Shown in pieces: positions 1 to 29,642 of a stretch of DNA of 44,933 nucleotides; position 1 is the stretch's first letter; each line of letters starts with the position of its first letter. The DNA is from Utricularia gibba. Lineage: Eukaryota; Streptophyta; Magnoliopsida; Lamiales; Lentibulariaceae. The notes under the pieces are model-generated. The model worked only from the letters and a program-made list of their open reading frames with translations, ran no database searches and had not been told where the DNA came from. The stretch is from assembly GCA_002189035.1 (NCBI GenBank), contig NEEC01000250.1, positions 1 to 44,933 of the forward strand, written 5' to 3'. A program made the position numbers and the translations under genes.

Positions 1-39
1 CGCGCTCTGGCCCATAGTCATTTGTAGCCGGCCAAAAAA
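1..39 (+). repeat. Partial C2 subunit at the left edge
   Basis: These bases match the last 39-40 bases of every C2 subunit, including the CATAGTCATTTGTAGCC segment just before the A anchor. The array therefore continues to the left of the window. Confidence 0.9.
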
Positions 40-5500: not shown

Positions 5501-8500
5501 TCCTACTCGATGAAAATCGTGATGCATTTAATGAAGTTATGATGTCATGAGCGCCCCAAATGGTTTTCTCAACAACCTGATTTATATTTGACGAGGTGCT
5601 CTAGGCTGGCACTAGTATCGAGCAAATGGTCGAGTCGCGCTCTGGCCCATAGTCATTTGTAGCCCGGCCAAAAAAGTGATGCATTTATTAACGTTGGGTT
5701 TTCGGCGGCTGCCTACATGCTTTTTCAAGGAAAAGTTGTCGTTTTTTGGCGGGTGCTGTTGTTGGGAACTTCGTCCGGACCCAAGGTTCGGTCTGACTTC
5801 ACAGCACAATAAGGTCCCATTCGACGAAAATCGTGATACCTTTATTGAAGTGAGGATCTCATGACCACCCCAAATGCTTTTTTCAACAGCATGCTTTAAC
5901 TTGAGAAGGCGCTTTTGTGGGTCACCCATCGGGCCGGAATTCGGGTCGGGCTTGGGGGACAAAGTCAGCTGTAGCCCGTCAAAAGAAGTGATGCATTTAT
6001 TAACGTTGGGTTGTCGGCGGCTGCCCACATGGTTTTTCAAGCAACAGCTTGCCGTTTTAAGGTGGGTGCTGTCGTTGGCAGCTTTGTAAGGGCCCAAGGT
6101 TTGGTCTGGCTCCTTAGCCCAATCGGGTCCTACTCGATGAAAATCGTGATGCATTTAATGAAGTTATGATGTCATGAGCGCCCCAAATGGTTTTCTCAAC
6201 AACCTGATTTATATTTGACGAGGTGCTCTAGGCTGGCACTAGTATCGAGCAAATGGTCGAGTCGCGCTCTGGCCCATAGTCATTTGTAGCCCGGCCAAAA
6301 AAGTGATGCATTTATTAACGTTGGGTTTTCGGCGGCTGCCTACATGCTTTTTCAAGGAAAAGTTGTCGTTTTTTGGCGGGTGCTGTTGTTGGAACTTCGT
6401 CCGGACCCAAGGTTCGGTCTGACTTCACAGCACAATAAGGTCCCATTCGACGAAAATCGTGATACCTTTATTGAAGTTAGGATCTCATGACCACCCCAAA
6501 TGCTTTTTTCAACAGCATGCTTTACACTTGAGAAGGCGCTTTTGTGGGTCACCCAGATCGGGCCGGAATTCGGTCGGGCTTGGGGGACAAAGTCAGCTGT
6601 AGCCCGTCAAAAGAAGTGATGCATTTATTAACGTTGGGTTGTCGGCGGCTGCCCACATGGTTTTTCAAGCAACAGCTTGCCGTTTTAAGGCGGGTGCTGT
6701 CGTTGGCAGCTTTGTAAGGGCCCAAGGTTTGGTCTGGCTCCTTAGCCCAATCGGGTCCTACTCGATGAAAATCGTGATGCATTTAATGGAGTTATGATGT
6801 CATGAGCGCCCCAAATGGTTTTCTCAACAACCTGATTTATATTTGACGAGGTGCTCTAGGCTGGCACTAGTATCGAGCAAATGGTCGAGTCGCGCTCTGG
6901 CCCATAGTCATTTGTAGCCCGGCCAAAAAAGTGATGCATTTATTAACGTTGGGTTTTCGGCGGCTGCCTACATGCTTTTTCAAGGAAAAGTTGTCGTTTT
7001 TTGGCGGGTGCTGTTGTTGGGAACTTCGTCCGGACCCAAGGTTCGGTCTGACTTCACAGCACAATAAGGTCCCATTCGACGAAAATCGTGATACCTTTAT
7101 TGAAGTGAGGATCTCAAGACCACCCAAATGCTTTTTTCAACAGCATGCTTTAAACTTGAGAAGGCGCTTTTGTGGGTCACCGAATCGGGCCGGAATTCGG
7201 GTCGGGCTTGGGGGACAAAGTCAGCTGTAGCCCGTCAAAAGAAGTGATGCATTTATTAACGTTGGGTTGTCGGCGGCTGCCCACATGGTTTTTCAAGCAA
7301 CAGCTTGCCGTTTTAAGGTGGGTGCTGTCGTTGGCAGCTTTGTAAGGGCCCAAGGTTTGGTCTGGCTCCTTAGCCCAATCGGGTCCTACTCGATGAAAAT
7401 CGTGATGCATTTAATGAAGTTATGATGTCATGAGCGCCCCAAATGGTTTTCTCAACAACCTGATTTATATTTGACGAGGTGCTCTAGGCTGGCACTAGTA
7501 TCGAGCAAATGGTCGAGTCGCGCTCTGTTAGTCATTTGTAGCCCGGCCAAAAAAGTGATGCATTTATTAACGTTGGGTTTTCGGCGGCTGCCTACATGCT
7601 TTTTCAAGGAAAAGTTGTCGTTTTTTGGCGGGTGCTGTTGTTGGAACTTCGTCCGGACCCAAGGTTCGGTCTGACTTCACAGCACAATAAGGTCCCATTC
7701 GACGAAAATCGTGATACCTTTATTGAAGTTAGGATCTCATGACCACCCCAAATGCTTTTTTCAACAGCATGCTTTAAACTTGAGAAGGCGCTTTTGTGGG
7801 TCACCCAGATCGGGCCGGAATTCGGTCGGCTTGGGGGACAAAGTCAGCTGTAGCCCGTCAAAAGAAGTGATGCATTTATTAACGTTGGGTTGTCGGCGGC
7901 TGCCCACATGGTTTTTCAAGCAACAGCTTGCCGTTTTAAGGCGGGTGCTGTCGTTGGCAGCTTTGTAAGGGCCCAAGGTTTGGTCTGGCTCCTTAGCCCA
8001 ATCGGGTCCTACTCGATGAAAATCGTGATGCATTTAATGAAGTTATGATGTCATGAGCGCCCCAAATGGTTTTCTCAACAACCTGATTTATATTTGACGA
8101 GGTGCTCTAGGCTGGCACTAGTATCGAGCAAATGGTCGAGTCGCGCTCTGGCCCATAGTCATTTGTAGCCCGGCCAAAAAAGTGATGCATTTATTAACGT
8201 TGGGTTTTCGGCGGCTGCCTACATGCTTTTTCAAGGAAAAGTTGTCGTTTTTTGGCGGTGCTGTTGTTGGGAACTTCGTCCGGACCCAAGGTTCGGTCTG
8301 ACTTCACAGCACAATAAGGTCCCATTCGACGAAAATCGTGATACCTTTATTGAAGTGAGGATCTCAAGACCACCCCAAATGCTTTTTTCAACAGCATGCT
8401 TTAAACTTGAGAAGGCGCTTTTGTGGGTCACCCAGATCGGGCCGGAATTCGGGTCGGGCTTGGGGGACAAAGTCAGCTGTAGCCCGTCAAAAGAAGTGAT

Positions 8501-9440
8501 GCATTTATTAACGTTGGGTTGTCGGCGGCTGCCCACATGGTTTTTCAAGCAACAGCTTGCCGTTTTAAGGTGGGTGCTGTCGTTGGCAGCTTTGTAAGGG
8601 CCCAAGGTTTGGTCTGGCTCCTTAGCCCAATCGGGTCCTACTCGATGAAAATCGTGATGCATTTAATGAAGTTATGATGTCATGAGCGCCCCAAATGGTT
8701 TTCTCAACAACCTGATTTATATTTGACGAGGTGCTCTAGGCTGGCACTAGTATCGAGCAAATGGTCGAGTCGCGCTCTGGCCCATAGTCATTTGTAGCCC
8801 GGCCAAAAAAGTGATGCATTTATTAACGTTGGGTTTTCGGCGGCTGCCTACATGCTTTTTCAAGGAAAAGTTGTCGTTTTTTGCGGGTGCTGTTGTTGGG
8901 AACTTCGTCCGGACCCAAGGTTCGGTCTGACTTCACAGCACAATAAGGTCCCATTCGACGAAAATCGTGATACCTTTATTGAAGTGAGGATCTCATGACC
9001 ACCCCAAATGCTTTTTTCAACAGCATGCTTTAAACTTGAGAAGGCGCTTTTGTGGGTCACCCAGATCGGGCCGGAATTCGGGTCGGGCTTGGGGGACAAA
9101 GTCAGCTGTAGCCCGTCAAAAGAAGTGATGCATTTATTAACGTTGGGTTGTCGGCGGCTGCCCACATGGTTTTTCAAAGCAACAGCTTGCCGTTTTAAGG
9201 TGGGTGCTGTCGTTGGCAGCTTTGTAAGGGCCCAAGGTTTGGTCTGGCTCCTTAGCCCAATCGGGTCCTACTCGATGAAAATCGTGATGCATTTAATGAA
9301 GTTATGATGTCATGAGCGCCCCAAATGGTTTTCTCAACAACCTGATTTATATTTGACGAGGTGCTCTAGGCTGGCACTAGTATCGAGCAAATGGTCGAGT
9401 CGCGCTCTGGCCCATAGTCATTTGTAGCCCGGCCAAAAAA

Positions 9441-10057
9441 GTGATGCATTTATTAACGTTGGGTTTTCGGCGGCTGCCTACATGCTTTTTCAAGGAAAAG
9501 TTGTCGTTTTTTGCGGCTGGGAACTTCGTCCGGACCCAAGGTTCGGTCTGACTTCACAGCACAATAAGGTCCCATTCGACGAAAATCGTGATACCTTTAT
9601 TGAAGTTAGGATCTCATGACCCCCCAAATGCTTTTTTCAACAGCATGCTTTAAACTTGAGAAGGCGCTTTTGTGGGTCACCCAGATCGGGCCGGAATTCG
9701 GTCGGCTTGGGGGACAAAGTCAGCTGTAGCCCGTCAAAAGAAGTGATGCATTTATTAACGTTGGGTTGTCGGCGGCTGCCCACATGGTTTTTCAAGCAAC
9801 AGCTTGCCGTTTTAAGGCGGGTGCTGTCGTTGGCAGCTTTGTAAGGGCCCAAGGTTTGGTCTGGCTCCTTAGCCCAATCGGGTCCTACTCGATGAAAATC
9901 GTGATGCATTTAATGAAGTTATGATGTCATGAGCGCCCCAAATGGTTTTCTCAACAACCTGATTTATATTTGACGAGGTGCTCTAGGCTGGCACTAGTAT
10001 CGAGCAAATGGTCGAGTCGCGCTCTGGCCCATAGTCATTTGTAGCCCGGCCAAAAAA
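9441..10057 (+). repeat. Dimer unit 16 with an internal deletion in A1
   Basis: This unit is 617 bp, the shortest complete dimer in block I. A1 reads TTTTTTGCGGCTGGGAAC near 9510-9525, so most of the usual GGGTGCTGTTGTTG tract is missing. It also carries GAAGTTAGGATC, AAGGCGGGTG and TTCGGTCGGCTTGG, a combination shared with unit 13 three units upstream and resembling block II in part. Confidence 0.85.
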
Positions 10058-13000
10058 GTGATGCATTTATTAACGTTGGGTTTTCGGCGGCTGCCTACAT
10101 GCTTTTTCAAGGAAAAGTTGTCGTTTTTTGGCGGGTGCTGTTGTTGGGAACTTCGTCCGGACCAAGGTTCGGTCTGACTTCACAGCACAATAAGGTCCCA
10201 TTCGACGAAAATCGTGATACCTTTATTGAAGTGAGGATCTCAAGACCACCCCAAATGCTTTTTTCAACAGCATGCTATACACTTGAGAAGGCGCTTTTGT
10301 GGGTCACCGAGATCGGGCCGGAATTCGGGTCGGGCTTGGGGGACAAAGTCAGCTGTAGCCCGTCAAAAGAAGTGATGCATTTATTAACGTTGGGTTGTCG
10401 GCGGCTGCCCACATGGTTTTTCAAGCAACAGCTTGCCGTTTTAAGGTGGGTGCTGTCGTTGGCAGCTTTGTAAGGGCCCAAGGTTTGGTCTGGCTCCTTA
10501 GCCCAATCGGGTCCTACTCGATGAAAATCGTGATGCATTTAATGAAGTTATGATGTCATGAGCGCCCCAAATGGTTTTCTCAACAACCTGATTTATATTT
10601 GACGAGGTGCTCTAGGCTGGCACTAGTATCGAGCAAATGGTCGAGTCGCGCTCTGGCCCATAGTCATTTGTAGCCCGGCCAAAAAAGTGATGCATTTATT
10701 AACGTTGGGTTTTCGGCGGCTGCCTACATGCTTTTTCAAGGAAAAGTTGTCGTTTTTTGGCGGGTGCTGTTGTTGGGAACTTCGTCCGGACCCAAGGTTC
10801 GGTCTGACTTCACAGCACATAAGGTCCCATTCGACGAAAATCGTGATACCTTTATTGAAGTGAGGATCTCAAGACCACCCCAAATGCTTTTTTCAACAGC
10901 ATGCTATACACTTGAGAAGGCGCTTTTGTGGGTCACCGAGATCGGGCCGGAATTCGGGTCGGGCTTGGGGGACAAAGTCAGCTGTAGCCCGTCAAAAAAG
11001 TGATGCATTTATTAACGTTGGGTTGTCGGCGGCTGCCCACATGGTTTTTCAAGCAACAGCTTGCCGTTTTAAGGTGGGTGCTGTCGTTGGCAGCTTTGTA
11101 AGGGCCCAAGGTTTGGTCTGGCTCCTTAGCCCAATCGGGTCCTACTCGATGAAAATCGTGATGCATTTAATGAAGTTATGATGTCATGAGCGCCCCAAAT
11201 GGTTTTCTCAACAACCTGATTTATTTTGACGAGGTGCTCTAGGCTGGCACTAGTATCGAGCAAATGGTCGAGTCGCGCTCTGGCCCATAGTCATTTGTAG
11301 CCCGGCCAAAAAAGTGATGCATTTATTAACGTTGGGTTTTCGGCGGCTGCCTACATGCTTTTTCAAGGAAAAGTTGTCGTTTTTTGGCGGGTGCTGTTGT
11401 TGGGAACTTCGTCCGGACCCAAGGTTCGGTCTGACTTCACAGCACAATAAGGTCCCATTCGACGAAAATCGTGATACCTTTATTGAAGTGAGGATCTCAT
11501 GACCACCCCAAATGCTTTTTTCAACAGCATGCTTTAAACTTGAGAAGGCGCTTTTGTGGGTCACCCAGATCGGGCCGGAATTCGGTCGGGCTTGGGGGAC
11601 AAAGTCAGCTGTAGCCCGTCAAAAGAAGTGATGCATTTATTAACGTTGGGTTGTCGGCGGCTGCCCACATGGTTTTTCAAGCAACAGCTTGCCGTTTTAA
11701 GGCGGGTGCTGTCGTTGGCAGCTTTGTAAGGGCCCAAGGTTTGGTCTGGCTCCTTAGCCCAATCGGGTCCTACTCGATGAAAATCGTGATGCATTTAATG
11801 AAGTTAGGATGTCATGAGCGCCCCAAATGGTTTTCTCAACAACCTGATTTATATTTGACGAGGTGCTCTAGGCTGGCACTAGTATCGAGCAAATGGTCGA
11901 GTCGCGCTCTGGCCCATAGTCATTTGTAGCCCGGCCAAAAAAGTGATGCATTTATTAACGTTGGGTTTTCGGCGGCTGCCTACATGCTTTTCAAGGAAAA
12001 GTTGTCGTTTTTTGGCGGGTGCTGTTGTTGGGAACTTCGTCCGGACCCAAGGTTCGGTCTGACTTCACAGCACAATAAGGTCCCATTCGACGAAAATCGT
12101 GATACCTTTATTGAAGTGAGGATCTCAAGACCACCCCAAATGCTTTTTTCAACAGCATGCTTTAAACTTGAGAAGGCGCTTTTGTGGGTCACCGAGATCG
12201 GGCCGGAATTCGGGTCGGGCTTGGGGACAAAGTCAGCTGTAGCCCGTCAAAAGAAGTGATGCATTTATTAACGTTGGGTTGTCGGCGGCTGCCCACATGG
12301 TTTTTCAAGCAACAGCTTGCCGTTTTAAGGTGGGTGCTGTCGTTGGCAGCTTTGTAAGGGCCCAAGGTTTGGTCTGGCTCCTTAGCCCAATCGGGTCCTA
12401 CTCGATGAAAATCGTGATGCATTTAATGAAGTTATGATGTCATGAGCGCCCCAAATGGTTTTCTCAACAACCTGATTTATATTTGACGAGGTGCTCTAGG
12501 CTGGCACTAGTATCGAGCAAATGGTCGAGTCGCGCTCTGGCCCATAGTCATTTGTAGCCCGGCCAAAAAAGTGATGCATTTATTAACGTTGGGTTTTCGG
12601 CGGCTGCCTACATGCTTTTTCAAGGAAAAGTTGTCGTTTTTTGGCGGGTGCTGTTGTTGGGAACTTCGTCCGGACCCAAGGTTCGGTCTGACTTCACAGC
12701 ACAATAAGGTCCCATTCGACGAAAATCGTGATACCTTTATTGAAGTGAGGATCTCAAGACCACCCCAAATGCTTTTTTCAACAGCATGCTATACACTTGA
12801 GAAGGCGCTTTTGTGGGTCACCGAGATCGGGCCGGAATTCGGTCGGGCTTGGGGGACAAAGTCAGCTGTAGCCCGTCAAAAGAAGTGATGCATTTATTAA
12901 CGTTGGGTTGTCGGCGGCTGCCCACATGGTTTTTCAAGCAACAGCTTGCCGTTTTAAGGTGGGTGCTGTCGTTGGCAGCTTTGTAAGGGCCCAAGGTTTG

Positions 13001-15079
13001 GTCTGGCTCCTTAGCCCAATCGGGTCCTACTCGATGAAAATCGTGATGCATTTAATGAGTTATGATGTCATGAGCGCCCCAAATGGTTTTCTCAACAACC
13101 TGATTTATATTTGACGAGGTGCTCTAGGCTGGCACTAGTATCGAGCAAATGGTCGAGTCGCGCTCTGGCCCATAGTCATTTGTAGCCCGGCCAAAAAAGT
13201 GATGCATTTATTAACGTTGGGTTTTCGGCGGCTGCCTACATGCTTTTTCAAGGAAAAGTTGTCGTTTTTTGGCGGGTGCTGTTGTTGGGAACTTCGTCCG
13301 GACCCAAGGTTCGGTCTGACTTCACAGCACAATAAGGTCCCATTCGACGAAAATCGTGATACCTTTATTGAAGTGAGGATCTCAAGACCACCCCAAATGC
13401 TTTTTTCAACAGCATGCTTTACACTTGAGAAGGCGCTTTTGTGGGTCACCGAGATCGGGCCGGAATTCGGGTCGGGCTTGGGGGACAAAGTCAGCTGTAG
13501 CCCGTCAAAAGAAGTGATGCATTTATTAACGTTGGGTTGTCGGGGCTGCCCACATGGTTTTTCAAGCAACAGCTTGCCGTTTTAAGGTGGGTGCTGTCGT
13601 TGGCAGCTTTGTAAGGGCCCAAGGTTTGGTCTGGCTCCTTAGCCCAATCGGGTCCTACTCGATGAAAATCGTGATGCATTTAATGAAGTTATGATGTCAT
13701 GAGCGCCCCAAATGGTTTTCTCAACAACCTGATTTATATTTGACGAGGTGCTCTAGGCTGGCACTAGTATCGAGCAAATGGTCGAGTCGCGCTCTGGCCC
13801 ATAGTCATTTGTAGCCCGGCCAAAAAAGTGATGCATTTATTAACGTTGGGTTTTCGGCGGCTGCCTACATGCTTTTTCAAGGAAAAGTTGTCGTTTTTTG
13901 GCGGGTGCTGTTGTTGGAACTTCGTCCGGACCCAAGGTTCGGTCTGACTTCACAGCACAATAAGGTCCCATTCGACGAAAATCGTGATACCTTTATTGAA
14001 GTGAGGATCTCATGACCACCCCAAATGCTTTTTTCAACAGCATGCTATACACTTGAGAAGGCGCTTTTGTGGTCACCGAGATCGGGCCGGAATTCGGGTC
14101 GGGCTTGGGGGACAAAGTCAGCTGTAGCCCGTCAAAAGAAGTGATGCATTTATTAACGTTGGGTTGTCGGCGGCTGCCCACATGGTTTTTCAAGCAACAG
14201 CTTGCCGTTTTAAGGTGGGTGCTGTCGTTGGCAGCTTTGTAAGGGCCCAAGGTTTGGTCTGGCTCCTTAGCCCAATCGGGTCCTACTCGATGAAAATCGT
14301 GATGCATTTAATGAGTTATGATGTCATGAGCGCCCCAAATGGTTTTCTCAACAACCTGATTTATATTTGACGAGGTGCTCTAGGCTGGCACTAGTATCGA
14401 GCAAATGGTCGAGTCGCGCTCTGGCCCATAGTCATTTGTAGCCCGGCCAAAAAAGTGATGCATTTATTAACGTTGGGTTTTCGGCGGCTGCCTACATGCT
14501 TTTCAAGGAAAAGTTGTCGTTTTTTGGCGGGTGCTGTTGTTGGGAACTTCGTCCGGACCCAAGGTTCGGTCTGACTTCACAGCACAATAAGGTCCCATTC
14601 GACGAAAATCGTGATACCTTTATTGAAGTGAGGATCTCAAGACCACCCCAAATGCTTTTTTCAACAGCATGCTATACACTTGAGAAGGCGCTTTTGTGGG
14701 TCACCCAGATCGGGCCGGAATTCGGGTCGGGCTTGGGGACAAAGTCAGCTGTAGCCCGTCAAAAAAGTGATGCATTTATTAACGTTGGGTTGTCGGCGGC
14801 TGCCCACATGGTTTTTCAAGCAAAGCTTGCCGTTTTAAGGTGGGTGCTGTCGTTGGCAGCTTTGTAAGGGCCCAAGGTTTGGTCTGGCTCCTTAGCCCAA
14901 TCGGGTCCTACTCGATGAAAATCGTGATGCATTTAATGAAGTTATGATGTCATGAGCGCCCCAAATGGTTTCTCAACAACCTGATTTATATTTGACGAGG
15001 TGCTCTAGGCTGGCACTAGTATCGAGCAAATGGTCGAGTCGCGCTCTGGCCCATAGTCATTTGTAGCCCGGCCAAAAAA

Positions 15080-15999
15080 GTGATGCATTTATTAACGTTG
15101 GGTTTTCGGCGGCTGCCTACATGCTTTTCAAGGAAAAGTTGTCGTTTTTTGGCGGGTGCTGTTGTTGGGAACTTCGTCCGGACCCAAGGTTCGGTCTGAC
15201 TTCACAGCACAATAAGGTCCCATTCGACGAAAATCGTGATACCTTTATTGAAGTGAGGATCTCAAGACCACCCCAAATGCTTTTTTCAACAGCATGCTTT
15301 AAACTGAGAAGGCGCTTTTGTGGGTCACCGAAATCGGGCCGGAATTCGGGTCGGGCTTGGGGGACAAAGTCAGCTGTAGCCCGTCAAAAGAAGTGATGCA
15401 TTTATTAACGTTGGGTTGTCGGCGGCTGCCACATGGTTTTTCAAGCAACAGCTTGCCGTTTTAAGGCGGGTGCTGTCGTTGGCAGCTTTGTAAGGTCCCA
15501 AGGTTCGGTCAGGCTCCTGAGCCCAAATCGGGTCCTACTCGATGAAAATCGTGATGCATTTGCTTTTGTTAGGATGTCATGAGAACCCCAAATGGGTTTT
15601 CTCCACACTCTACTTTATATTTGAGAAGGCGCTCTCGGGGGGTTTTGGGATTGGGCCAGAGGTCGGGTCGGGCTCACGCCCATAGTCAGTTGTAGCCCGG
15701 AAAATAAGTGATGCATTTATCAACGTTGGGTTTTCGGCGGCTGCCTAAATGGTTTTTCAAGCAACAGCTTGCCGTTTTAAGGCGGGTGCTGTCGTTGGCA
15801 GCTTTGTAAGGGCCCAAGGTTTGGTCTGGCTCCTGAGCCCAATCGGGTCCTACTCGATGAAAATCGTGATGCATTTAATGAAGTTAGGATGTCATGATGA
15901 CGCCAAAATGGTCGACGAGGTGCTCTAGGCTGGCACTAGTATCGAGCAAATGGTCGAGTCGCGCTCTGGCCCATAGTCATTTGTAGCCCGGCCAAAAAA
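15080..15999 (+). repeat. Junction unit 25: block-I A monomer joined to block-II B and C
   Basis: A25 (15080-15392) has block-I bases (GAAGTGAGG, CTCAAGACC). B25 (15393-15707) changes to block-II type at about 15496, where GTAAGGTCCC replaces GTAAGGGCCC, followed by GTCAGGCTCCTGAG and the first B2 half in the window. C25 (15708-15999) is the first full C monomer and lacks about 27 bases in C2 where the TCTCAACAACCTGATTTATA tract normally lies. The switch from dimer to trimer is therefore abrupt and inside one monomer. Confidence 0.88.
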
Positions 16000-17225
16000 G
16001 TGATGCATTTATTAACGTTGGGTTTTCGGCGGCTGCCTACATGCTTTTTCAAGGAAAAGTTGTCGTTTTTTGGCGGGTGCTGTTGTTGGGAACTTCGTCC
16101 GGACCCAAGGTTCGGTCTGACTTCACAGCACAATAAGGTCCATTCGACGAAAATCGTGATACCTTTATTGAAGTTAGGATCTCATGACCACCCCAAATGC
16201 TTTTTTCAACAGCATGCTTTAAACTGAGAAGGCGCTTTTGTGGGTCACCGATCGGGCCGGAATTCGGGTCGGGCTTGGGGACAAAGTCAGCTGTAGCCCG
16301 TCAAAAGAAGTGATGCATTTATTAACGTTGGGTTGTCGGCGGCTGCCCACATGGTTTTTCAAGCAACAGCTTGCCGTTTTAAGGCGGGTGCTGTCGTTGG
16401 CAGCTTTGTAAGGTCCCAAGGTTCGGTCAGGCTCCTGAGCCCAATCGGGTCCTACTCGATGAAAATCGTGATGCATTTGCTTTTGTTAGGATGTCATGAG
16501 AACCCCAATGGGTTTTCTCAACACTCTACTTTATATTTGAGAAGGCGCTCTCGGGGGGTTTTGGGATGGGCCAGAGGTCGGGTCGGGCTCACGCCCATAG
16601 TCAGTTGTAGCCCGGAAAATAAGTGATGCATTTATCAACGTGGGTTTTCGGCGGCTGCCAAATGGTTTTTCAAGCAACAGCTTGCCGTTTTAAGGCGGGT
16701 GCTGTCGTTGGCAGCTTTGTAAGGGCCCAAGGTTCGGTCTGGCTCCTGAGCCAATCGGGTCCTACTCGATGAAAATCGTGATGCATTTGCTTTTGTTAGG
16801 ATGTCATGAGAACCCCAATGGTTTTCTCCACACTCTACTTTATATTTGAGAAGGCGCTCATTGGGCCAGAGTCGGGTCGGGCTCACGCCATAGTCAGTTG
16901 TAGCCCGGAAAATAAGTGATGCATTTATCAACGTTGGGTTTTCGGCGGCTGCCTAAATGGTTTTTCAAGAACAGCTTGCCGTTTTAAGGCGGGTGTGTCG
17001 TTGGCAGCTTTGTAAGGGCCCAAGGTTTGGTCTGGCTCCTGAGCCCAATCGGGTCCTACTCGATGAAAATCGTGATGCATTTAATGATTAGGATGTCATG
17101 AGCGCCCAAATGGTTTTCTCAACAACCTGATTTATATTTGACGAGGTGCTCTAGGCTGGCACTAGTATCGAGCAAATGGTCGAGTCGCGCTCTGGCCCAT
17201 AGTCATTTGTAGCCCGGCCAAAAAA
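16000..17225 (+). repeat. Tetrameric HOR unit 26 (A-B-X-C)
   Basis: The 1226-bp unit has monomers at 16000 (A), 16310 (B), 16623 (X) and 16916 (C). X starts like C1 (TTATCAACG, then CTGCCAAATGG) and ends like B2 (TGCATTTGCTTTTGTTAGG, CTCCACACTCTAC), so it is a C1::B2 chimera. B2 of this unit has CTCAACACTCTAC rather than CTCCACACTCTAC, shared with units 30 and 34. Confidence 0.9.
16623..16915 (+). repeat. Extra chimeric monomer X26 (C1::B2), 293 bp
   Basis: The first half is C1-like but lacks one T in CTGCC(T)AAATGG, a private variant shared with X30 and X34. The second half is B2-like and has lost part of the GGGGGGTTTTGGG tract (GGCGCTCATTGGGCC). Its structure is the reciprocal of the B1::C2 chimera that defines the dimers. 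Confidence 0.87.
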
Positions 17226-20043
17226 GTGATGCATTTATTAACGTTGGGTTTTCGGCGGCTGCCTACATGCTTTTTCAAGGAAAAGTTGTCGTTTTTTGGC
17301 GGGTGCTGTTGTTGGGAACTTCGTCCGGACCCAAGGTTCGGTCTGACTTCACAGCACAATAAGGTCCCATTCGACGAAAATCGTGATACCTTTATTGAAG
17401 TTAGGATCTCGTGACCACCCCAAATGCTTTTTTCAACAGCATGCTATACACTCGAGAGGGCGCTTTTGTGGGTCACCGAGATCGGGCCGGAATTCGGGTC
17501 GAGCTCGGGCCCAAAGTCAGTTGTAGCCCGTCAAAAGAAGTGATGCATTTATTAACGTTGGGTTCGGCGGCTGCCCACATGTTTTTCAAGCAACAGCTTG
17601 CCGTTTTAAGGCGGGTGCTGTCGTTGGCAGCTTTGTAAGGGCCCAAGGTTCGGTCAGGCTGAGCCTAATCGGGTCCTACTCGATGAAAATCGTGATGCAT
17701 TTGCTTTTGTTAGGATGTCATGAGAACCCCAATGGGTTTTCTCCACACTCTACTTTATATTTGAGAAGGCGCTCTCGGGGGGTTTTGGGATTGGGCCTGA
17801 GGTCGGGTCGGGCTCACCCATAGTCAGTTGTAGCCCGGAAAATAAGTGATGCATTTATCAACGTTGGGTTTTCGGCGGCTGCCTAAATGGTTTTTCAAGC
17901 AACAGCTTGCCGTTTTAAGGCGGGTGCTGTCGTTGGCAGCTTTGTAAGGGCCCAAGGTTTGGTCTGGCTCCTGAGCCCAATCGGGTCCTACTCGATGAAA
18001 ATCGTGATGCATTTAATGATGTTAGGATGTCATGAGCGCCCCAAATGGTTTTCTCAACAACTTGATTTATATTTGACGAGGTGCTCTAGGCTGGCACTAG
18101 TATCGAGCAAATGGTCGAGTCGCGCTCTGGCCCATAGTCATTTGTAGCCCGGCCAAAAAAGTGATGCATTTATTAACGTTGGGTTTTCGGCGGCTGCCTA
18201 CATGCTTTTTCAAGGAAAAGTTGTCGTTTTTTGGCGGGTGCTGTTGTTGGGAACTTCGTCCGGACCCAAGGTTCGGTCTGACTTCACAGCACAATAAGGT
18301 CCCATTCGACGAAAATCGTGATACCTTTATTGAAGTTAGGATCTCATGACCACCCCAAATGCTTTTTTCAACAGCATGCTTTAAACTTGAGAAGGCGCTT
18401 TTGTGGGTCACCCAGATCGGGCCGGAATTCGGGTCGGGCTTGGGGGACAAAGTCAACTGTAGCCCGTCAAAAGAAGTGATGCATTTATTAACGTTGGGTT
18501 GTCGGCGGCTGCCCACATGGTTTTTCAAGCAACAGCTTGCCGTTTTAAGGCGGGTGCTGTCGTTGGCAGCTTTGTAAGGTCCCAAGGTTCGGTCAGGCTC
18601 CTGAGCCCAATCGGGTCCTACTCGATGAAAATCGTGATGCATTTGCTTTTGTTAGGATGTCATGAGAACCCCAATGGGTTTTCTCCACACTCTACTTTAT
18701 ATTTGAGAAGGCGCTCTCGGGGGGTTTTGGGATTGGGCCAGAGGTCGGGTCGGGCTCACGCCCATAGTCAGTTGTAGCCCGGAAAATAAGTGATGCATTT
18801 ATCAACGTTGGGTTTTCGGCGGCTGCCTAAATGGTTTTTCAAGCAACAGCTTGCCGTTTTAAGGCGGGTGCTGTCGTTGGCAGCTTTGTAAGGGCCCAAG
18901 GTTTGGTCTGGCTCCTGAGCCCAATCGGGTCCTACTCGATGAAAATCGTGATGCATTTAATGAAGTTAGGATGTCATGAGCGCCCCAAATGGTTTTCTCA
19001 ACAACCTGATTTATATTTGACGAGGTGCTCTAGGCTGGCACTAGTATCGAGCAAATGGTCGAGTCGCGCTCTGGCCCATAGTCATTTGTAGCCCGGCCAA
19101 AAAAAGTGATGCATTTATTAACGTTGGGTTTTCGGCGGCTGCCTACATGCTTTTTCAAGGAAAAGTTGTCGTTTTTTGGCGGGTGCTGTTGTTGGGAACT
19201 TCGTCCGGACCCAAGGTTCGGTCTGACTTCACAGCACAATAAGGTCCCATTCGACGAAAATCGTGATACCTTTATTGAAGTTAGGATCTCATGACCACCC
19301 AAATGCTTTTTTCAACAGCATGCTTTAAACTTGAGAAGGCGCTTTTGTGGGTCACCCAGATCGGGCCGGAATTCGGGTCGGGCTCTGGGGACAAAGTCAG
19401 CTGTAGCCCGTCAAAAGAAGTGATGCATTTATTAACGTTGGGTTGTCGGCGGCTGCCCACATGGTTTTTCAAGCAACAGCTTGCCGTTTTAAGGCGGGTG
19501 CTGTCGTTGCTTTGTAAGGGCCCAAGGTTCGGTCAGGCTCCTGAGCCAATCGGGTCCTACTCGATGAAAATCGTGATGCATTTGCTTTTGTTAGGATGTC
19601 ATGAGAACCCCAATGGGTTTTCTCCACACTCTACTTTATATTTGAGAAGGCGCTCTCGGGGGGTTTTGGGATTGGGCCAGAGGTCGGGTCGGGCTCACGC
19701 CCATAGTCAGTTGTAGCCCGGAAAATAAGTGATGCATTTATCAACGTTGGGTTTTCGGCGGCTGCCTAAATGGTTTTTCAAGCAACAGCTTGCCGTTTTA
19801 AGGCGGGTGCTGTCGTTGGCAGCTTTGTAAGGGCCCAAGGTTTGGTCTGGCTCCTGAGCCCAATCGGGTCCTACTCGATGAAAATCGTGATGCATTTAAT
19901 GAAGTTAGGATGTCATGAGCGCCCCAAATGGTTTTCTCAACAACCTGATTTATATTTGACGAGGTGCTCTAGGCTGGCACTAGTATCGAGCAAATGGTCG
20001 AGTCGCGCTCTGGCCCATAGTCATTTGTAGCCCGGCCAAAAAA

Positions 20044-21205
20044 GTGATGCATTTATTAACGTTGGGTTTTCGGCGGCTGCCTACATGCTTTTTCAAGGAA
20101 AAGTTGTCGTTTTTGGCGGGTGCTGTTGTTGGGAACTTCGTCCGGACCCAAGGTTCGGTCTGACTTCACAGCACAATAAGGTCCCATTCGACGAAAATCG
20201 TGATACCTTTATTGAAGTTAGGATCTCGTGACCACCCAAATGCTTTTTTCAACAGCATGCTATACACTCGAGAGGGCGCTTTTGTGGGTCACCGAGATCG
20301 GGCCGGAATTCGGGTCGAGCTCGGGCCCAAAGTCAGTGTAGCCCGTCAAAAGAAGTGATGCATTTATTAACGTTGGGTTGTCGGCGGCTGCCCACATGGT
20401 TTTTCAAGCAACAGCTTGCCGTTTTAAGGCGGGTGCTGTCGTTGGCAGCTTTGTAAGGTCCCAAGGTTCGGTCAGGCTCCTGAGCCCAATCGGGTCCTAC
20501 TCGATGAAAATCGTGATGCATTGCTTTTGTTAGGATGTCATGAGAACCCCAATGGGTTTTCTCAACACTACTTTATATTTGAGAAGGCGCTCTCGGGGGG
20601 TTGGGATGGGGCCAGAGGTCGGGTCGGGCTCACGCCCATAGTCAGTTGTAGCCCGGAAAATAAGTGATGCATTTATCAACGTTGGGTTTTCGGCGGCTGC
20701 CAAATGGTTTTTCAAGCAACAGCTTGCCGTTTTAAGGCGGGTGTGTCGTTGGCAGTTTTGTAAGGGCCCAGGTTCGGTCTGGCTCCTGAGCCCAATCGGG
20801 TCCTACTCGATGAAAATCGTGATGCATTTGCTCCCCAATGGGTTTTTCCACACTCTACTCTCGGCTCGGGTCGGGCTCATGCCCATAGTCAGCCCGGGAA
20901 CATTTATCAACGTTGGGTTTTCGGCGGCTGCCTAAATGGTTTTTCAAGCACAGCTTGCCGTTTTAAGGCGGGTGCTGTCGTTGGCAGCTTTGTAAGGGCC
21001 AAGGTTTGGTCTGGCTCCTGAGCCCAATCGGCCTACTCGATGAAAATCGTGATGCATTTAATGATGTTAGGATGTCATGAGCGCCCCAAATGGTTTTCTC
21101 AACAACCTGATTTATATTTGACGAGGTGCTCTAGGCTGGCACTAGTATCGAGCAAATGGTCGAGTCGCGCTCTGGCCCATAGTCATTTGTAGCCCGGCCA
21201 AAAAA
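20044..21205 (+). repeat. Tetrameric HOR unit 30 with shortened fourth monomer
   Basis: Monomers start at 20044 (A), 20355 (B), 20664 (X) and about 20901 (C, whose GTGATG anchor is deleted). The unit begins 4,044 bp after unit 26. A2 carries CTCGTGACC and CTCGAGAGGG, shared with units 27 and 34 (and, with a local indel, 33). Confidence 0.88.
20664..20900 (+). repeat. Extra chimeric monomer X30, internally deleted, about 237 bp
   Basis: It has the same CTGCCAAATGG signature as X26. The B2-like half has lost segments: GATGCATTTGCTCCCCAATG joins sequence normally about 25 bases apart, and CTCTACTCTCGGCTCGGG lacks the TTTATATTTGAGAAGG segment. The right border is approximate because the next anchor is missing. 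Confidence 0.82.
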
Positions 21206-24014
21206 GTGATGCATTTATTAACGTTGGGTTTTCGGCGGCTGCCTACATGCTTTTTCAAGGAAAAGTTGTCGTTTTTTGGCGGGTGCTGTTGTTGGGAACT
21301 TCGTCCGGACCCAAGGTTCGGTCTGACTTCACAGCACAATAAGGTCCCATTCGACGAAAATCGTGATACCTTTATTGAAGTTAGGATCTCATGACCACCC
21401 CAAATGCTTTTTTCAACAGCATGCTATAAACTTGAGAAGGCGCTTTTGTGGGTCACCGAGATCGGGCCGGAATTCGGGTCGGCTCGGGCCAAAGTCAGTT
21501 GTAGCCCGTCAAAAGAAGTGATGCATTTATTAACGTTGGGTTGTCGGCGGCTGCCCACATGGTTTTTCAAGCAACAGCTTGCCGTTTTAAGGCGGGTGCT
21601 GTCGTTGGCAGCTTTGTAAGGGCCCAAGGTTCGGTCAGGCTCCTGAGCCTAATCGGGTCCTACTCGATGAAAATCGTGATGCATTTGCTTTTGTTAGGAT
21701 GTCATGAGAACCCCAATGGGTTTTCTCCACACTCTACTTTATATTTGAGAAGGCGCTCTCGGGGGGTTTGGGATTGGGCCTGAGGTCGGGTCGGGCTCAC
21801 GCCCATAGTCAGTTGTAGCCCGGAAAATAAGTGATGCATTTATCAACGTTGGGTTTTCGGCGGCTGCCTAAATGGTTTTTCAAGCAACAGCTTGCCGTTT
21901 TAAGGCGGGTGCTGTCGTTGGCAGCTTTGTAAGGGCCCAAGGTTTGGTCTGGCTCCTGAGCCCAATCGGGTCCTACTCGATGAAAATCGTGATGCATTTA
22001 ATGATGTTAGGATGTCATGAGCGCCCCAAATGGTTTTCTCAACAACCTGATTTATATTTGACGAGGTGCTCTAGGCTGGCACTAGTATCGAGCAAATGGT
22101 CGAGTCGCGCTCTGGCCCATAGTCATTTGTAGCCCGGCCAAAAAAGTGATGCATTTATTAACGTTGGGTTTTCGGCGGCTGCCTACATGCTTTTTCAAGA
22201 AAAGTTGTCGTTTTTTGGCGGGTGCTGTTGTTGGGAACTTCGTCGGACCCAAGGTTCGGTCTGACTTCACAGCACAATAAGGTCCCATTCGACGAAAATC
22301 GTGATACCTTTATTGAAGTTAGGATCTCATGACCACCCCAAATGCTTTTTTCAACAGCATGCTTTAAACTTGAGAAGGCGCTTTTGTGGGTCACCCAGAT
22401 CGGGCCGGAATTCGGGTCGGGCTGGGGACAAAGTCAGCTGTAGCCCGTCAAAAGAAGTGATGCATTTATTAACGTTGGGTTGTCGGCGGCTGCCCATGGT
22501 TTTTCAAGCAACAGCTTGCCGTTTTAAGGCGGGTGCTGTCGTTGGCAGCTTTGTAAGGGCCCAAGGTTCGGTCAGGCTCCTGAGCCTAATCGGGTCCTAC
22601 TCGATGAAAATCGTGATGCATTTGCTTTTGTTAGGATGTCATGAGAACCCCAATGGTTTTTCTCCACACTCTACTTTATATTTGAGAAGGCGCTCTCGGG
22701 GGGTTTGGGATTGGGCCAGAGGTCGGGTCGGGCTCACGCCCATAGTCAGTTGTAGCCGGAAAATAAGTGATGCATTTATCAACGTTGGGTTTCGGCGGCT
22801 GCCTAAATGGTTTTTCAAGCAACAGCTTGCCGTTTTAAGGCGGGTGCTGTCGTTGGCAGCTTTGTAAGGGCCCAAGGTTTGGTCTGGCTCCTGAGCCAAT
22901 CGGGTCCTACTCGATGAAAATCGTGATGCATTTAATGAAGTTAGGATGTCATGAGCGCCCCAAATGGTTTTCTCAACAACCTGATTTATATTTGACGAGG
23001 TGCTCTAGGCTGGCACTAGTATCGAGCAAATGGTCGAGTCGCGCTCTGGCCCATAGTCATTTGTAGCCCGGCCAAAAAAGTGATGCATTTATTAACGTTG
23101 GGTTTTCGGCGGCTGCCTACATGCTTTTTCAAGGAAAAGTTGTCGTTTTTTGGCGGGTGCTGTTGTGGGAACTTCGTCCGGACCCAAGGTTCGGTCTGAC
23201 TTCACAGCACAATAAGGTCCCATTCGACGAAAATCGTGATACCTTTATTGAAGTTAGGATCTCGTGACCACCCCAAATGCTTTTTTCAACAGCATGCTAA
23301 CACTCGAGAGGGCGCTTTTGTGGGTCACCGAGATCGGGCCGGAATTCGGGTCGGGCTCGGGACAAAGTCAGCTGTCCCGTCAAAAGAAGTGATGCATTTA
23401 TTAACGTTGGGTTGTCGGCGCCTGCCCACATGGTTTTTCAAGCAACAGCTTGCCGTTTTAAGGCGGGTGCTGTCGTTGGCAGCTTTGTAAGGTCCCAAGT
23501 TCGGTCAGGCTCCTGAGCCTAATCGGGTCCTACTCGATGAAAATCGTGATGCATTTGCTTTTGTTAGGATGTCATGAGAACCCCAATGGGTTTTCTCCAC
23601 ACTCTACTTTATATTTGAGAAGGCGCTCTCGGGGGGTGGGATTGGGCCAGAGGTCGGGTCGGGCTCACGCCCATAGTCAGTTGTAGCCCGGAAAATAAGT
23701 GATGCATTTATCAACGTTGGGTTTTCGGCGGCTGCCTAAATGGTTTTTCAAGCAACAGCTTGCCGTTTTAAGGCGGGTGCTGTCGTTGGCAGCTTTGTAA
23801 GGGCCCAAGGTTTGGTCTGGCTCCTGAGCCCAATCGGGTCCTACTCGATGAAAATCGTGATGCATTTAATGAAGTTAGGATGTCATGAGCGCCCCAAATG
23901 GTTTTCTCAACAACCTGATTTATATTTGACGAGGTGCTCTAGGCTGGCACTAGTATCGAGCAAATGGTCGAGTCGCGCTCTGGCCCATAGTCATTTGTAG
24001 CCCGGCCAAAAAAA

Positions 24015-25116
24015 GTGATGCATTTATTAACGTTGGGTTTTCGGCGGCTGCCTACATGCTTTTTCAAGGAAAAGTTGTCGTTTTTTGGCGGGTGCTGTTG
24101 TTGGGAACTTCGTCCGACCCAAGGTTCGGTCTGACTTCACAGCAATAAGGTCCCATTCGACGAAAATCGTGATACCTTTATTGAAGTTAGGATCTCGTGA
24201 CCACCCCAAATGCTTTTTTCAACAGCATGCTATACACTCGAGAGGGCGCTTTTGTGGGTCACCGAGATCGGGCCGGAATTCGGGTCGAGCTCGGGCCCAA
24301 AGTCAGCTGTAGCCGACAAAAGAAGTGATGCATTTATTAACGTTGGGTTGTCGGCGGCTGCCCACATGGTTTTTCAAGCAACAGCTTGCCGTTTTAAGGC
24401 GGGTGCTGTCGTTGGCAGCTTTGTAAGGGCCCAAGGTTCGGTCAGGCTCCTGAGCCCAATCGGGTCCTACTCGATGAAAATCGTGATGCATTTGCTTTTG
24501 TTAGGATGTCATGAGAACCCCAATGGGTTTTCTCAACACTCTACTTTATATTTGAGAAGGCGCTCTCGGGGGTTTGGGATGGGCCTCGGGTCGGGCTGCC
24601 CATAGTCAGTTGTAGCCCGGAAAATAAGTGATGCATTTATCAACGTTGGGTTTTCGGCGGCTGCCAAATGGTTTTTCAAGCAACAGCTTGCCGTTTTAAG
24701 GCGGGTGCTGTCGTTGGCAGCTTTGTAAGGGCCCAAGGTTCGGTCTGGCTCCTGAGCAATCGGGTCCTACTCGATGAAAATCGTGATGCATTTAGGATGC
24801 CCGAGAAGAAAAAAGTCAGTTGTAGCCTAAGTGATGCATTTATAACGTTGGGTTTTCGGCGGCTGCAAATGGTTTTTCAAGGCTTGCCGTTTTAAGAGCT
24901 TTGTAAGGGCCCAAGGTTTGGTCTGGCTCTGAGCCCAATCGGGTCCTACTCGATGAAAATCGTGATGCATTTAATGAAGTTAGGATGTCATGAGCGCCCA
25001 AATGGTTTTCTCAACAACCTGATTTATATTTGACGAGGTGCTCTAGGCTGGCACTAGTATCGAGCAAATGGTCGAGTCGCGCTCTGGCCCATAGTCATTT
25101 GTAGCCCGGCAAAAAA
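24015..25116 (+). repeat. Tetrameric HOR unit 34 with strongly shortened fourth monomer
   Basis: Monomers start at 24015 (A), 24325 (B), 24628 (X) and 24831 (C). The unit begins 3,971 bp after unit 30, again four units on. A2 carries GGGTCGAGCTCGGGCCC and the A/B border reads GACAAAAG, the pattern that later defines block-III alpha dimers. The C monomer is also eroded: CTGCAAATGG, and TTTTAAGAGCTTTG lacking the GCGGGTGCTGTCGTTGG tract. Confidence 0.87.
24628..24830 (+). repeat. Extra chimeric monomer X34, about 203 bp
   Basis: It keeps the CTGCCAAATGG signature and an almost full C1-like half, but its B2-like half is reduced to a few short pieces (GATGCATTTAGGATGCCCG, then AAAAAAGTCAGTTGTAGCC). 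It is the shortest of the three X monomers. Confidence 0.82.
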
Positions 25117-28100
25117 GTGATGCATTTATTAACGTTGGGTTTTCGGCGGCTGCCTACATGCTTTTTCAAGGAAAAGTTGTCGTTTTTTGGCGGGTGCTGT
25201 TGTTGGGAACTTCGTCCGGACCCAAGGTTCGGTCTGACTTCACAGCACAATAAGGTCCCATTCGACGAAAATCGTGATACCTTTATTGAAGTTAGGATCT
25301 CATGACCACCCCAAATGCTTTTTTCAAACAGCATGCTGAGAAGGCGCTTTTGTGGGTCACCGAGATCGGGCCGGAATTCGGGTCGGCTCGGGCCCAAAGT
25401 CAGCTGTAGCCCGTCAAAAGAAGTGATGCATTTATTAACGTTGGGTTGTCGGCGGCTGCCCACATGGTTTTTCAAGCAACAGCTTGCCGTTTTAAGGCGG
25501 GTGCTGTCGTTGGCAGCTTTGTAAGGGCCCAAGGTTCGGTCAGGCTCCTGAGCCAATCGGGTCCTACTCGATGAAAATCGTGATGCATTTGCTTTTGTTA
25601 GGATGTCATGAGAACCCCAATGGGTTTTCTCCACACTCTACTTTATATTTGAGAAGGCGCTCTCGGGGGTTTTGGGATTGGGCCGAGGTCGGGTCGGGCT
25701 CACGCCCATAGTCAGTTGTAGCCCGGAAAATAAGTGATGCATTTATCAACGTTGGGTTTTCGGCGGCTGCCTAAATGGTTTTTCAAGCAACAGCTTGCCG
25801 TTTTAAGGCGGGTGCTGTCGTTGGCAGCTTTGTAAGGGCCCAAGGTTTGGTCTGGCTCCTGAGCCCAATCGGGTCCTACTCGATGAAAATCGTGATGCAT
25901 TTAATGAAGTTAGGATGTCATGAGCGCCCAAATGGTTTTCTCAACAACCTGATTTATATTTGACGAGGTGCTCTAGGCTGGCACTAGTATCGAGCAAATG
26001 GTCGAGTCGCGCTCTGGCCATAGTCATTTGTAGCCCGGCCAAAAAAGTGATGCATTTATTAACGTTGGGTTTTCGGCGGCTGCCTACATGCTTTTTCAAG
26101 GAAAAGTTGTCGTTTTTTGGCGGGTGCTGTTGTTGGGAACTTCGTCCGGACCCAAGGTTCGGTCTGACTTCACAGCACAATAAGGTCCCATTCGACGAAA
26201 ATCGTGATACCTTTATTGAAGTTAGGATCTCATGACCACCCCAAATGCTTTTTTCAACAGCATGCTTTAAACTTGAGAAGGCGCTTTTGTGGGTCACCAG
26301 ATCGGGCCGGAATTCGGGTCGGGCTTGGGGACAAAGTCAGCTGTAGCCCGTCAAAAGAAGTGATGCATTTATTAACGTTGGGTTGTCGGCGGCTGCCCAC
26401 ATGGTTTTTCAAGCAACAGCTTGCCGTTTTAAGGCGGGTGCTGTCGTTGGCAGCTTTGTAAGGGCCCAAGGTTCGGTCTGGCTCCTGAGCCCAATCGGGT
26501 CCTACTCGATGAAAATCGTGATGCATTTGCTTTTGTTAGGATGTCATGAGAACCCCAATGGGTTTTTCTCACACTCTACTTTATATTTGAGAAGGCGCTC
26601 TCGGGGGGTTTTGGGATTGGGCCAGAGGTCGGGTCGGGCCCATAGTCAGTTGTAGCCCGGAAAAAGTGATGCATTTATCAACGTTGGGTTTTCGGCGGCT
26701 GCCTAAATGGTTTTTCAAGCAACAGCTTGCCGTTTTAAGGCGGGTGCTGTCGTTGGCAGCTTTGTAAGGGCCCAAGGTTTGGTCTGGCTCCTGAGCCCAA
26801 TCGGGTCCTACTCGATGAAAATCGTGATGCATTTAATGAAGTTAGGATGTCATGAGCGCCCCAAATGGTTTTCTCAACAACCTGATTTATATTTGACGAG
26901 GTGCTCTAGGCTGGCACTAGTATCGAGCAAATGGTCGAGTCGCGCTCTGGCCCATAGTCATTTGTAGCCCGGCCAAAAAAGTGATGCATTTATTAACGTT
27001 GGGTTTTCGGCGGCTGCCTACATGCTTTTTCAAGGAAAAGTTGTCGTTTTTTGGCGGGTGCTGTTGTTGGGAACTTCGTCCGGACCCAAGGTTCGGTCTG
27101 ACTTCACAGCACAATAAGGTCCCATTCGACGAAAATCGTGATACCTTTATTGAAGTTAGGATCTCATGACCACCCAAATGCTTTTTTCAACAGCATGCTA
27201 TACACTTGAGAAGGCGCTTTTGTGGGTCACCGAGATCGGGCCGGAATTCGGGTCGGGCTCGGGGACAAAGTCAGCTGTAGCCCGTCAAAAGAAGTGATGC
27301 ATTTATTAACGTTGGGTTGTCGGCGGCTGCCCACATGGTTTTTCAAGCAACAGCTTGCCGTTTTAAGGCGGGTGCTGTCGTTGGCAGCTTTGTAAGGGCC
27401 CAAGGTTCGGTCAGGCTCCTGAGCCCAATCGGGTCCTACTCGATGAAAATCGTGATGCATTTGCTTTTGTTAGGATGTCATGAGAACCCCAATGGGTTTT
27501 CTCCACACTCTACTTTATATTTGAGAAGGCGCTCTCGGGGGGTTGGGATTGGGCCAGAGGTCGGGTCGGGCTCACGCCCATAGTCAGTTGTAGCCCGGAA
27601 AATAAGTGATGCATTTATCAACGTTGGGTTTTCGGCGGCTGCCTAAATGGTTTTTCAAGCAACAGCTTGCCGTTTTAAGGCGGGTGCTGTCGTTGGCAGC
27701 TTTGTAAGGGCCAAGGTTTGGTCTGGCTCCTGAGCCCAATCGGGTCCTACTCGATGAAAATCGTGATGCATTTAATGAAGTTAGGATGTCATGAGCGCCC
27801 CAAATGGTTTTCTCAACAACCTGATTTATATTTGACGAGGTGCTCTAGGCTGGCACTAGTATCGAGCAAATGGTCGAGTCGCGCTCTGGCCCATAGTCAT
27901 TTGTAGCCCGGCCAAAAAAGTGATGCATTTATTAACGTTGGGTTTTCGGCGGCTGCCTACATGCTTTTTCAAGGAAAAGTTGTCGTTTTTTGGCGGGTGC
28001 TGTTGTTGGGAACTTCGTCCGGACCCAAGGTTCGGTCTGACTTCACAGCACAATAAGGTCCCATTCGACGAAAATCGTGATACCTTTATTGAAGTTAGGA

Positions 28101-29484: not shown

Positions 29485-29642
29485 GTGATGCATTTATCAA
29501 CGTTGGGTTTTCGGCGGCTGCCTAAATGGTTTTTCAAGCAACAGCTTGCCGTTTTAAGGCGGGTGCTGTCGTTGGCAGCTTTGTAAGGGCCCAAGGTTTG
29601 GTCTGGCTCCTGAGCCCAATCGGGTCCTACTCGATGAAAATC
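29485..29642 (+). repeat. C1 subunit (representative)
   Basis: Diagnostics are ATTTATCAACG (A1 and B1 have ATTTATTAACG), CTGCCTAAATGG, and late AAGGTTTGGTCTGGCTCC. Otherwise it is very close to B1. Confidence 0.88.

What the first reader, a model, noticed from the sequence alone, without database searches (positions are those of the whole stretch)
16623..24830. Both reciprocal products of the same exchange are present: X monomers are C1::B2
The extra monomer in units 26, 30 and 34 starts as C1 and ends as B2, the exact reciprocal of the B1::C2 dimers. Its C-to-B switch maps to the same B1/C1-identical interval. Unequal crossing-over predicts one deletion (dimer) and one duplication (tetramer) product, and seeing both in one array is unusual.
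Basis: partly seen in the sequence, partly recalled or inferred. Interest (0 to 1): 0.7.

Follow-up and report, generated by a model that had tools for sequence, protein, structure and literature searches.

The report
Hybrid satellite monomers from unequal exchange
A plant satellite DNA array holds both the shortened and the lengthened repeat units that out-of-step recombination between two of its repeats should produce; this fits ordinary satellite evolution, and whether both came from one single event cannot be shown.

Summary
The window is one satellite array (A, B, C monomers, ~314 bp each) in a plant genome. Three units have the order A-B-X-C. X is C-like at columns 1-47 and B-like from 121 on; the second half of X26 is 1.3% from local B and 22.5% from C. 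The X switch and the dimer (B1::C2) switch both fall in the 73 bp (columns 48-120) where B and C are identical. One apparent misfit, T126 in X, is explained because about half of the B monomers examined carry T126.

"Products of the same exchange" is not shown. The X copies look like one event, copied with a ~4 kb four-unit block that a second contig also has. Dimers are far commoner (182 against 5 X). The 73-bp tract is the longest B/C identity, so independent exchanges would often land there. Some other dimers have other junctions.

New context: related arrays often have A-B-D-C units whose D is also C-like at the start and B-like later, but X is not descended from D. In the window family, B carries a C-like tract (about 96-175), absent from sister B, that makes B and C nearly identical there. 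This is recurrent unequal exchange in a higher-order-repeat satellite, a known kind.

The parts
16617..16909 (+). X26, hybrid monomer C1::B2 in tetramer unit 15994-17219
   Evidence: C states at columns 4, 20, 32, 47; C121/T126; B2 second half (1.3% from local B); about 15 bp missing in the G-run.
20658..20897 (+). X30, hybrid monomer C1::B2 with ~70 bp of B2 missing, in tetramer unit 20038-21199
24622..24826 (+). X34, C1-type start with the X states at 45, 121 and 126; B2 almost wholly lost or replaced, last dozen bases B-like
15994..20037 (+). Four-unit block (A-B-X-C plus three A-B-C), copy 1
20038..24008 (+). Four-unit block, copy 2
24009..27913 (+). Four-unit block, copy 3
34..15073 (+). 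24 dimers A-(B1::C2)
   Evidence: T134, a state not seen in the C or B monomers tabulated, is in 24 of the 35 C99 dimers (35 includes dimers outside this stretch).
16304..16616 (+). B monomer before X26, with A217; the B before X30 (20349) and before X34 (24319) share it
16662..16734 (+). X26 counterpart of B/C columns 48-120, the identical tract in which the C-to-B switch lies
   Evidence: placed from the match at 16660.
33503..33808 (+). C monomer directly after A (A-C dimer), a second kind of contraction; others in the window start at 36307, 36922, 37541, 40037

Best explanation
The array is a higher-order-repeat satellite with unit A-B-C. The B monomer of this family at some time acquired a C-like stretch (about columns 96-175), probably by gene conversion. 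That left B and C identical over 73 bp (48-120). Out-of-register homologous recombination between B of one unit and C of another within this tract produced shortened units A-(B1::C2), which amplified into long dimer runs. In a separate, or at least not demonstrably identical, event it produced a lengthened unit A-B-(C1::B2)-C. The lengthened unit most likely arose once, using a B of the T126 type, and was copied as part of a four-unit block of about 4 kb, giving X26, X30 and X34. Shown: the hybrid architecture, the shared interval and the repeated block. Inferred: the single origin of X, the recombination mechanism, the conversion step and the order of events.
For: Order A-B-X-C. Switch interval from diagnostic columns; T126 in about half of B. 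X26 is 0.3-1.9% from local B and C over 48-175 and 1.3% from local B over 176-315, against 5.4-9.6% from sister D there (80 chosen local and 83 sister monomers). A 25-mer with T45 lost has 12 exact genome hits: the three C99 X, the first C456 X, C99:40070 and C435:1031 (A-C dimers), and six on sister contigs C68, C109, C438, C443. A217 occurs in 4 of 86 B, each directly before an X (three in C99, the second in C456). Trimers at the same place in the block differ by 3.6 substitutions on average (30 pairs), others between blocks by 6.9 (60 pairs); 2 of 36 phase arrangements for C99 and 4 of 1296 for all five blocks do as well or better, the observed one included. Local B against sister C at columns 96-120, 121-150, 151-175: 1/25, 1/30, 0/25; against sister B: 5/24, 4/30, 3/25.
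Against: The B before the first C456 X does not show A217: it has a gap there, and it carries a C-like patch (T121, T126, AATGAAG) before returning to B, so it is itself a mosaic. The five-block phase test is not optimal (observed 108, best 98), and the C456 blocks alone give 2 of 6. The assembly looks noisy, and X30, X34 and the second C456 X have different internal deletions, so details may be consensus error. X columns 1-47 are slightly closer to sister D (0.2%) than to local C (1.8%). Non-reciprocal copying (break-induced replication, slippage) would give the same lengthened unit. C99 and C456 disagree on the number of X blocks (3 against 2).
Confidence: 0.78

Rival explanations
1. Same-event reading: the dimers and X descend from the two reciprocal products of one exchange, kept in one array.
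For: Complementary architecture and the same 73-bp switch interval. Both kinds lie in C99 and in C456.
Against: The interval is where 33-77% of random B/C exchanges would fall. Dimers number 182 on all six contigs examined; X 5 on two contigs that share unit order. Sister-chromatid exchange sends the two products to different chromatids (general knowledge). At the diagnostic columns 4-47, B hardly varies, so the parents cannot be linked.
Confidence: 0.1
2. Loop-out and reinsertion: exchange within one chromatid between B and C of one trimer leaves a dimer and releases a one-monomer circle, which is C1::B2, that is X. The circle reinserts into another unit.
For: It gives both products in one array without needing two chromatids. 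Circles of plant satellite repeats are reported (PMC2543021, seen only in a search listing with the start of its abstract).
Against: No direct evidence here. It needs two steps where one unequal exchange suffices.
Confidence: 0.1
3. X is a surviving copy of an ancestral fourth monomer (D of the sister arrays), and the trimers lost it.
For: Sister arrays have A-B-D-C units with the same C-like start and B-like end. X26 columns 1-47 are closer to sister D (0.2%) than to local C (1.8%), and X shares C121/T126 with sister monomers.
Against: Over 48-175 X26 is 0.3-1.9% from local B and C but 8.4-9.6% from sister D; over 176-315 it is 1.3% from local B but 5.4% from sister D. X has the local CTCC and GCTTTTG states.
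Confidence: 0.07
4. Assembly artefact: the extra monomer was made by misassembly of noisy reads.
For: Many indels; X30, X34 and the second C456 X are damaged differently. C99 and C456 share the region and differ in copy number. The B before the first C456 X is an odd mosaic.
Against: Two near-complete X (X26 and the first C456 X, both 293 bp) on two contigs share T45 loss, C121/T126 and a deletion in the same G-run.
Confidence: 0.07

Closest known systems
Hybrid monomers of human alpha satellite (CentromereArchitect, PMC8336445; passages read)
   Same: A monomer formed of the prefix of one frequent monomer and the suffix of another, in a higher-order-repeat array; the paper explains its cenX examples by deletion in the repeat unit.
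   Different: Plant satellite of 314-bp monomers; here the hybrid marks a lengthened unit, and the opposite hybrid marks shortened units in the same array.
S4-S5-S3 alpha-satellite trimers of Chiropotes and Pithecia, as described in PMC4585704 (passage read)
   Same: A chimeric third monomer (S5) attributed to unequal crossover between the two monomers of a dimer, and then part of the unit. The logic resembles X and sister D.
   Different: There a 25-bp shift left a duplication; here the switch is in register within an identical tract.
Crossover-driven domains in human D1Z5 and related arrays (PMC2853522; passages read)
   Same: Unequal crossover between neighbouring repeats plus conversion, followed by local amplification.
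   Different: No matched pair of contraction and expansion hybrids in the passages seen; 'reciprocal' does not occur in its main text.
Sister arrays of this genome with A-B-D-C units (stretches of contigs C47, C109, C443, C511; D-C units mostly in C68, C438)
   Same: Same order, and D is C-like at 1-47 and B-like later.
   Different: D is built from sister-family sequence, 5-10% from X26 beyond column 47.

Membership tests
Higher-order-repeat satellite DNA | Long head-to-tail array of monomers arranged in a multi-monomer unit, units more alike than the monomers within them | tested here: met
   Whole window is one array. Full-length monomers are mostly within about 0-15 edits of their own type's seed (up to about 30) and about 40-85 from other types.
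Hybrid monomer | Prefix of one frequent monomer joined to the suffix of another | tested here: met
   X26: C1 prefix, B suffix. X30 met in part; X34 only by its last dozen bases.
Hybrid monomer | Divergence from the best hybrid of two frequent monomers at or below 1% (default of CentromereArchitect, PMC8336445) | tested here: inconclusive
   By segment X26 is 0.3-1.8% from its parents in substitutions, with indels on top that may be sequencing error.
Reciprocal pair from one unequal crossing-over | Complementary junctions in the same interval | tested here: met
   Both between columns 47 and 121.
Reciprocal pair from one unequal crossing-over | Both products from the same two parental monomers | tested here: inconclusive
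   B hardly varies at the diagnostic columns 4-47, so dimers cannot be tied to a B type; X uses B of T126 type.
Centromeric satellite | Occupies functional centromeres (CENH3) | not testable with these tools
   No ChIP data. The contig-ordered listing of exact 20-mer hits begins at C34, so none on C1-C33, including the 5.3-Mb-plus contig C3 that has telomere repeats at its start and near 5.347 Mb.

The most novel reading that the evidence does not exclude
One short tract near columns 48-120, identical between B and C because B received a C-like stretch, is a recurrent exchange site. The array classes of this genome (A-BC dimers, A-B-C trimers with A-B-X-C, and the older A-B-D-C units) would be contraction or expansion products of exchange at about this point, so that a conversion event sets where later length changes of the repeat unit occur.
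Probability: 0.3. Interest if true: 0.5.

Novelty: new member of a known kind. Interest (0 to 1): 0.33.

Why it matters
The array gives matched contraction and expansion hybrids with nucleotide-level limits on the exchange tract, together with sister arrays in the same genome where a like expansion became common. That makes it a compact natural test of whether conversion-made identity directs later unequal exchange in satellites. By itself it fits the standard model.

Tried and rejected
X as a relic of sister monomer D: disfavoured by segment distances, although columns 1-47 alone do not exclude it. X switch in a different interval because of T126: dropped after the B survey. Three independent X events: disfavoured by T45 loss and block phase. 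A possible further X in C133 (L033, about 5370-6577): the letters show a rearranged stretch whose B2 is preceded by a first half that has lost its start, so it cannot be called. rDNA search (RF01960) gave no usable answer twice, so a link to ribosomal spacer repeats was not tested. Lan et al. 2017 is not held. Three paper searches touching Utricularia or Lentibulariaceae (one search matched 1,980 papers and listed 12) showed no title or abstract start describing this satellite; of the Utricularia papers only passages of PMC8333044 and PMC10663240 were read.

Species: plant (rbcL on C516), 100.09 Mb in 516 contigs. From memory this resembles the Utricularia gibba PacBio assembly. Not verified, and PMC5793159 gives 581 contigs (passage).

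The sister units are mixed, not purely A-B-D-C.
Full report
What is there. The whole window is a satellite array with a ~314-bp period and is given as G000:C99:1-44933 of a 100.09-Mb, 516-contig genome. rbcL on C516 marks it as a plant. The species is not verified. A dynamic-programming decomposition with three seed monomers gives 146 segments; a second one with half-monomers gives the unit order: A-(B1::C2) dimers to 15073, A-B-C trimers from 15074 to 32586, then a mixture. The extra monomer X lies between B and C at 16617-16909, 20658-20897 and 24622-24826. The finding's coordinates are right to within a few bases.

X is C1::B2. B1 and C1 differ at columns 4, 20, 32, 45, 47, 121 and 126 only. 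X has the C state at 4, 20, 32 and 47, has lost T45, and has C121 and T126. At first T126 looked like a misfit, since the seed B has A126. But 27 of 65 B, and 46 of 86 B, have the B haplotype with C121+T126. X is thus C to column 47 and B (T126 type) from 121. Substitution distances by segment agree (X26 against 80 chosen local and 83 sister monomers): columns 1-47, 1.8% from local C and 9.6% from local B; 121-175, 0.8% from B and 1.9% from C; 176-315, 1.3% from B and 22.5% from C. The first C456 X gives 1.2% from B over 176-315. The damaged copies are weaker: X30 16.1% and the second C456 X 13.9% from B over 176-315 (still less than the 28.0% and 27.1% from C), and X34 keeps only a B-like last dozen bases.

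The dimers switch in the same interval. 151 of 162 B1C2 first halves read GTGCCTT at the seven columns, that is B to 47 and C from 121. The seed B and C have identical runs of 73 bp (from 48), 49 bp (from 127) and eight shorter ones of 9 to 16 bp. If an exchange needs 1 to 40 bp of identity, 33 to 77% of exchanges would fall in the 73-bp run. Coincidence of the interval is therefore expected.

One X event, then block copying. Window and contig C456 share the order [ABXC, ABC, ABC, ABC], three times in C99 and twice in C456; the last block runs on into more trimers (eight in all after the last X), then dimer, A-C dimer, dimer, in both. The in-register alignment of C99 25111-32586 with C456 41055-48542 shows 15 substitutions in 7.5 kb; shifted by one trimer it is 30 in 6.5 kb. 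So the two contigs may be alleles, duplicates or overlapping assemblies, and their X are not independent. Trimers at the same place in the block differ by 3.6 substitutions on average (30 pairs), others between blocks by 6.9 (60 pairs). Exact phase permutations: 2 of 36 arrangements do as well as the observed one for C99, none better; 4 of 1296 for all five blocks do as well or better (observed 108, best 98); C456 alone 2 of 6. A 25-mer with T45 lost has 12 exact hits in the genome, four of them X; the second C456 X has a larger deletion there. A217 is in 4 of 86 B, each directly before an X. The fifth, before the first C456 X, has a gap at 217 and a C-like patch at about 121-186 inside a B monomer: T121, T126 and AATGAAG, then back to B. 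This counts against a fully clean single-origin story and may be a further conversion patch.

How far X reaches. An exact pattern for AAATGG followed by CATTTGCT has 440 hits, of which only the first 100 or so are listed; the listed ones lie on C47, C68, C99 and C109. So monomers with a C-like start and a GCT second half are common in sister arrays. The narrower pattern AAATGG to AAGGTTCGGTC has 89 hits, all listed; by eye only C99:16660, C99:24666 and C456:36570 have the local-family sequence in between. Copies with indels (X30, the second C456 X) escape this pattern, so others may too. I decomposed C99, C456 (all but 499 bases) and C113 in full, 20 kb of the 27 kb of C435, about 27.5 of 118 kb of C452 and 13.4 of 61 kb of C133. 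Monomers of 256-344 bp there: 182 B1C2, 111 C1C2, 86 B1B2, 2 C1B2, to which X30, X34 and the second C456 X are added by hand, making 5 X. Some sequence is probably counted twice where C99 and C456 overlap. Contigs C92, C106, C174 and C436 also carry the A monomer and were searched by pattern only.

Other exchanges. Thirteen C monomers follow A directly. Several have C-type first halves and share private changes (GTCATG); C435a_18912, and less clearly C435a_14298, are B-like at columns 4 and 20 but C-like at 47, a different junction; a few are B1::C2 with noise. Dimers fall in at least two groups: T134 in 24 of 35 in C99 and 19 of 93 in C456 (8 dimers have a gap there), 0 of 54 in the other contigs. 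The fetched parts of C452 at 30-40 and 43.5-53.5 kb alternate trimer and dimer.

Sister arrays. Stretches of 4-5 kb of six contigs were read. Monomer strings: C47 DDCBDDCABDCABDCA, C109 ABDCBDCABDCBD, C443 CBCABCABDCBCABDC, C511 ABDDCABCABDCBC, C68 ABDCDCDCDDCDCDCD, C438 CDCDDCDCDCDCABD. A-B-D-C is thus common but mixed with B-D-C, A-B-C and D-C. On C47 many one search hits are about 1,250 bp apart, as a four-monomer unit would give. Consensus D (tetramer contigs) against sister B: 6 differences in 1-47, then 1/28, 3/20, 1/24, 1/30, 1/24, 2/40, 1/44, 1/54 by bins to 315. Against sister C: 1 in 1-47, 1/28, 2/20, then 4/25, 4/30, 2/24, 5/40, 11/45, 12/54. D is also C-like at the start and B-like later, with its switch between 47 and about 108. 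The opposite polarity, B being the hybrid, is not excluded. X is not descended from D by columns 48-315.

Where the identical tract came from. Sister B and C consensus differ at 16 of 127 positions over 48-175; the window-family consensus B and C differ at 1 of 128. Over 96-175 local B matches sister C (2 differences in 80) and not sister B (12 in 79), while columns 1-47 equal sister B and 176-315 are nearer sister B or D (9/137, 8/138) than sister C (30/138). The simplest reading is a conversion tract from C into B (inferred).

Mechanism. Unequal homologous exchange between B and C in the identical tract explains both kinds of unit. Break-induced replication or circle reinsertion would also give X; PMC8122249 (passage) mentions expansions by break-induced replication with deletions by unequal exchange as a possibility. 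Nothing here separates these.

Known kind. Hybrid monomers are described in human alpha satellite (PMC8336445, passages), and a chimeric monomer from unequal crossover in New World monkey trimers is cited in PMC4585704 (passage). I saw no paper with this plant satellite in the listings; that is not proof of absence.

Abundance and place. The 20-mer AAGTGATGCATTTATYAACG has 3,904 exact hits, which at one per 314-bp monomer means roughly 1.2 Mb or more (inferred). The listing is in contig order and begins at C34, so C1-C33 have no exact hit; C3 has telomere repeats at its start and, in the other orientation, near 5.347 Mb, probably its other end (contig length not seen). If the genome is U. gibba, this agrees with the statement in PMC8333044 (passage) that its putative centromeres lack satellite repeats.

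Noticed in passing
G000 contigs C47, C109, C443, C511 (L023, L027, L026, L028): Sister arrays in which A-B-D-C units are common (mixed with B-D-C and A-B-C), D being C-like at the start and B-like later.
   Followed up: partly
C68, C438 (L024, L025): Stretches of mostly D-C two-monomer units, a third array class.
   Followed up: partly
C452 30001-40000 and 43501-53500 (L031, L032); C456 about 25.6-35 kb: Regular alternation of trimer and dimer, a five-monomer unit of about 1.57 kb.
   Followed up: no
window 33503, 36307, 36922, 37541, 40037; C435, C456, C133: A-C dimers with C directly after A, one or two in C435 with another junction (B-like at 4 and 20, C-like at 47).
   Followed up: partly
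C456 36215-36525 (within L003): B monomer before the first C456 X carries a C-like patch (about columns 121-186), a B-C-B mosaic.
   Followed up: partly
L033 (C133:17001-27000) about 5370-6577: Rearranged stretch with A2-like sequence inside a B1 and some sequence unlike A, B or C.
   Followed up: partly
G000 C1-C33 against C34 onward: About 1.2 Mb or more of this satellite by exact 20-mer count, but no exact hit listed on C1-C33, including C3, which has telomere repeats at its start and near 5.347 Mb.
   Followed up: partly
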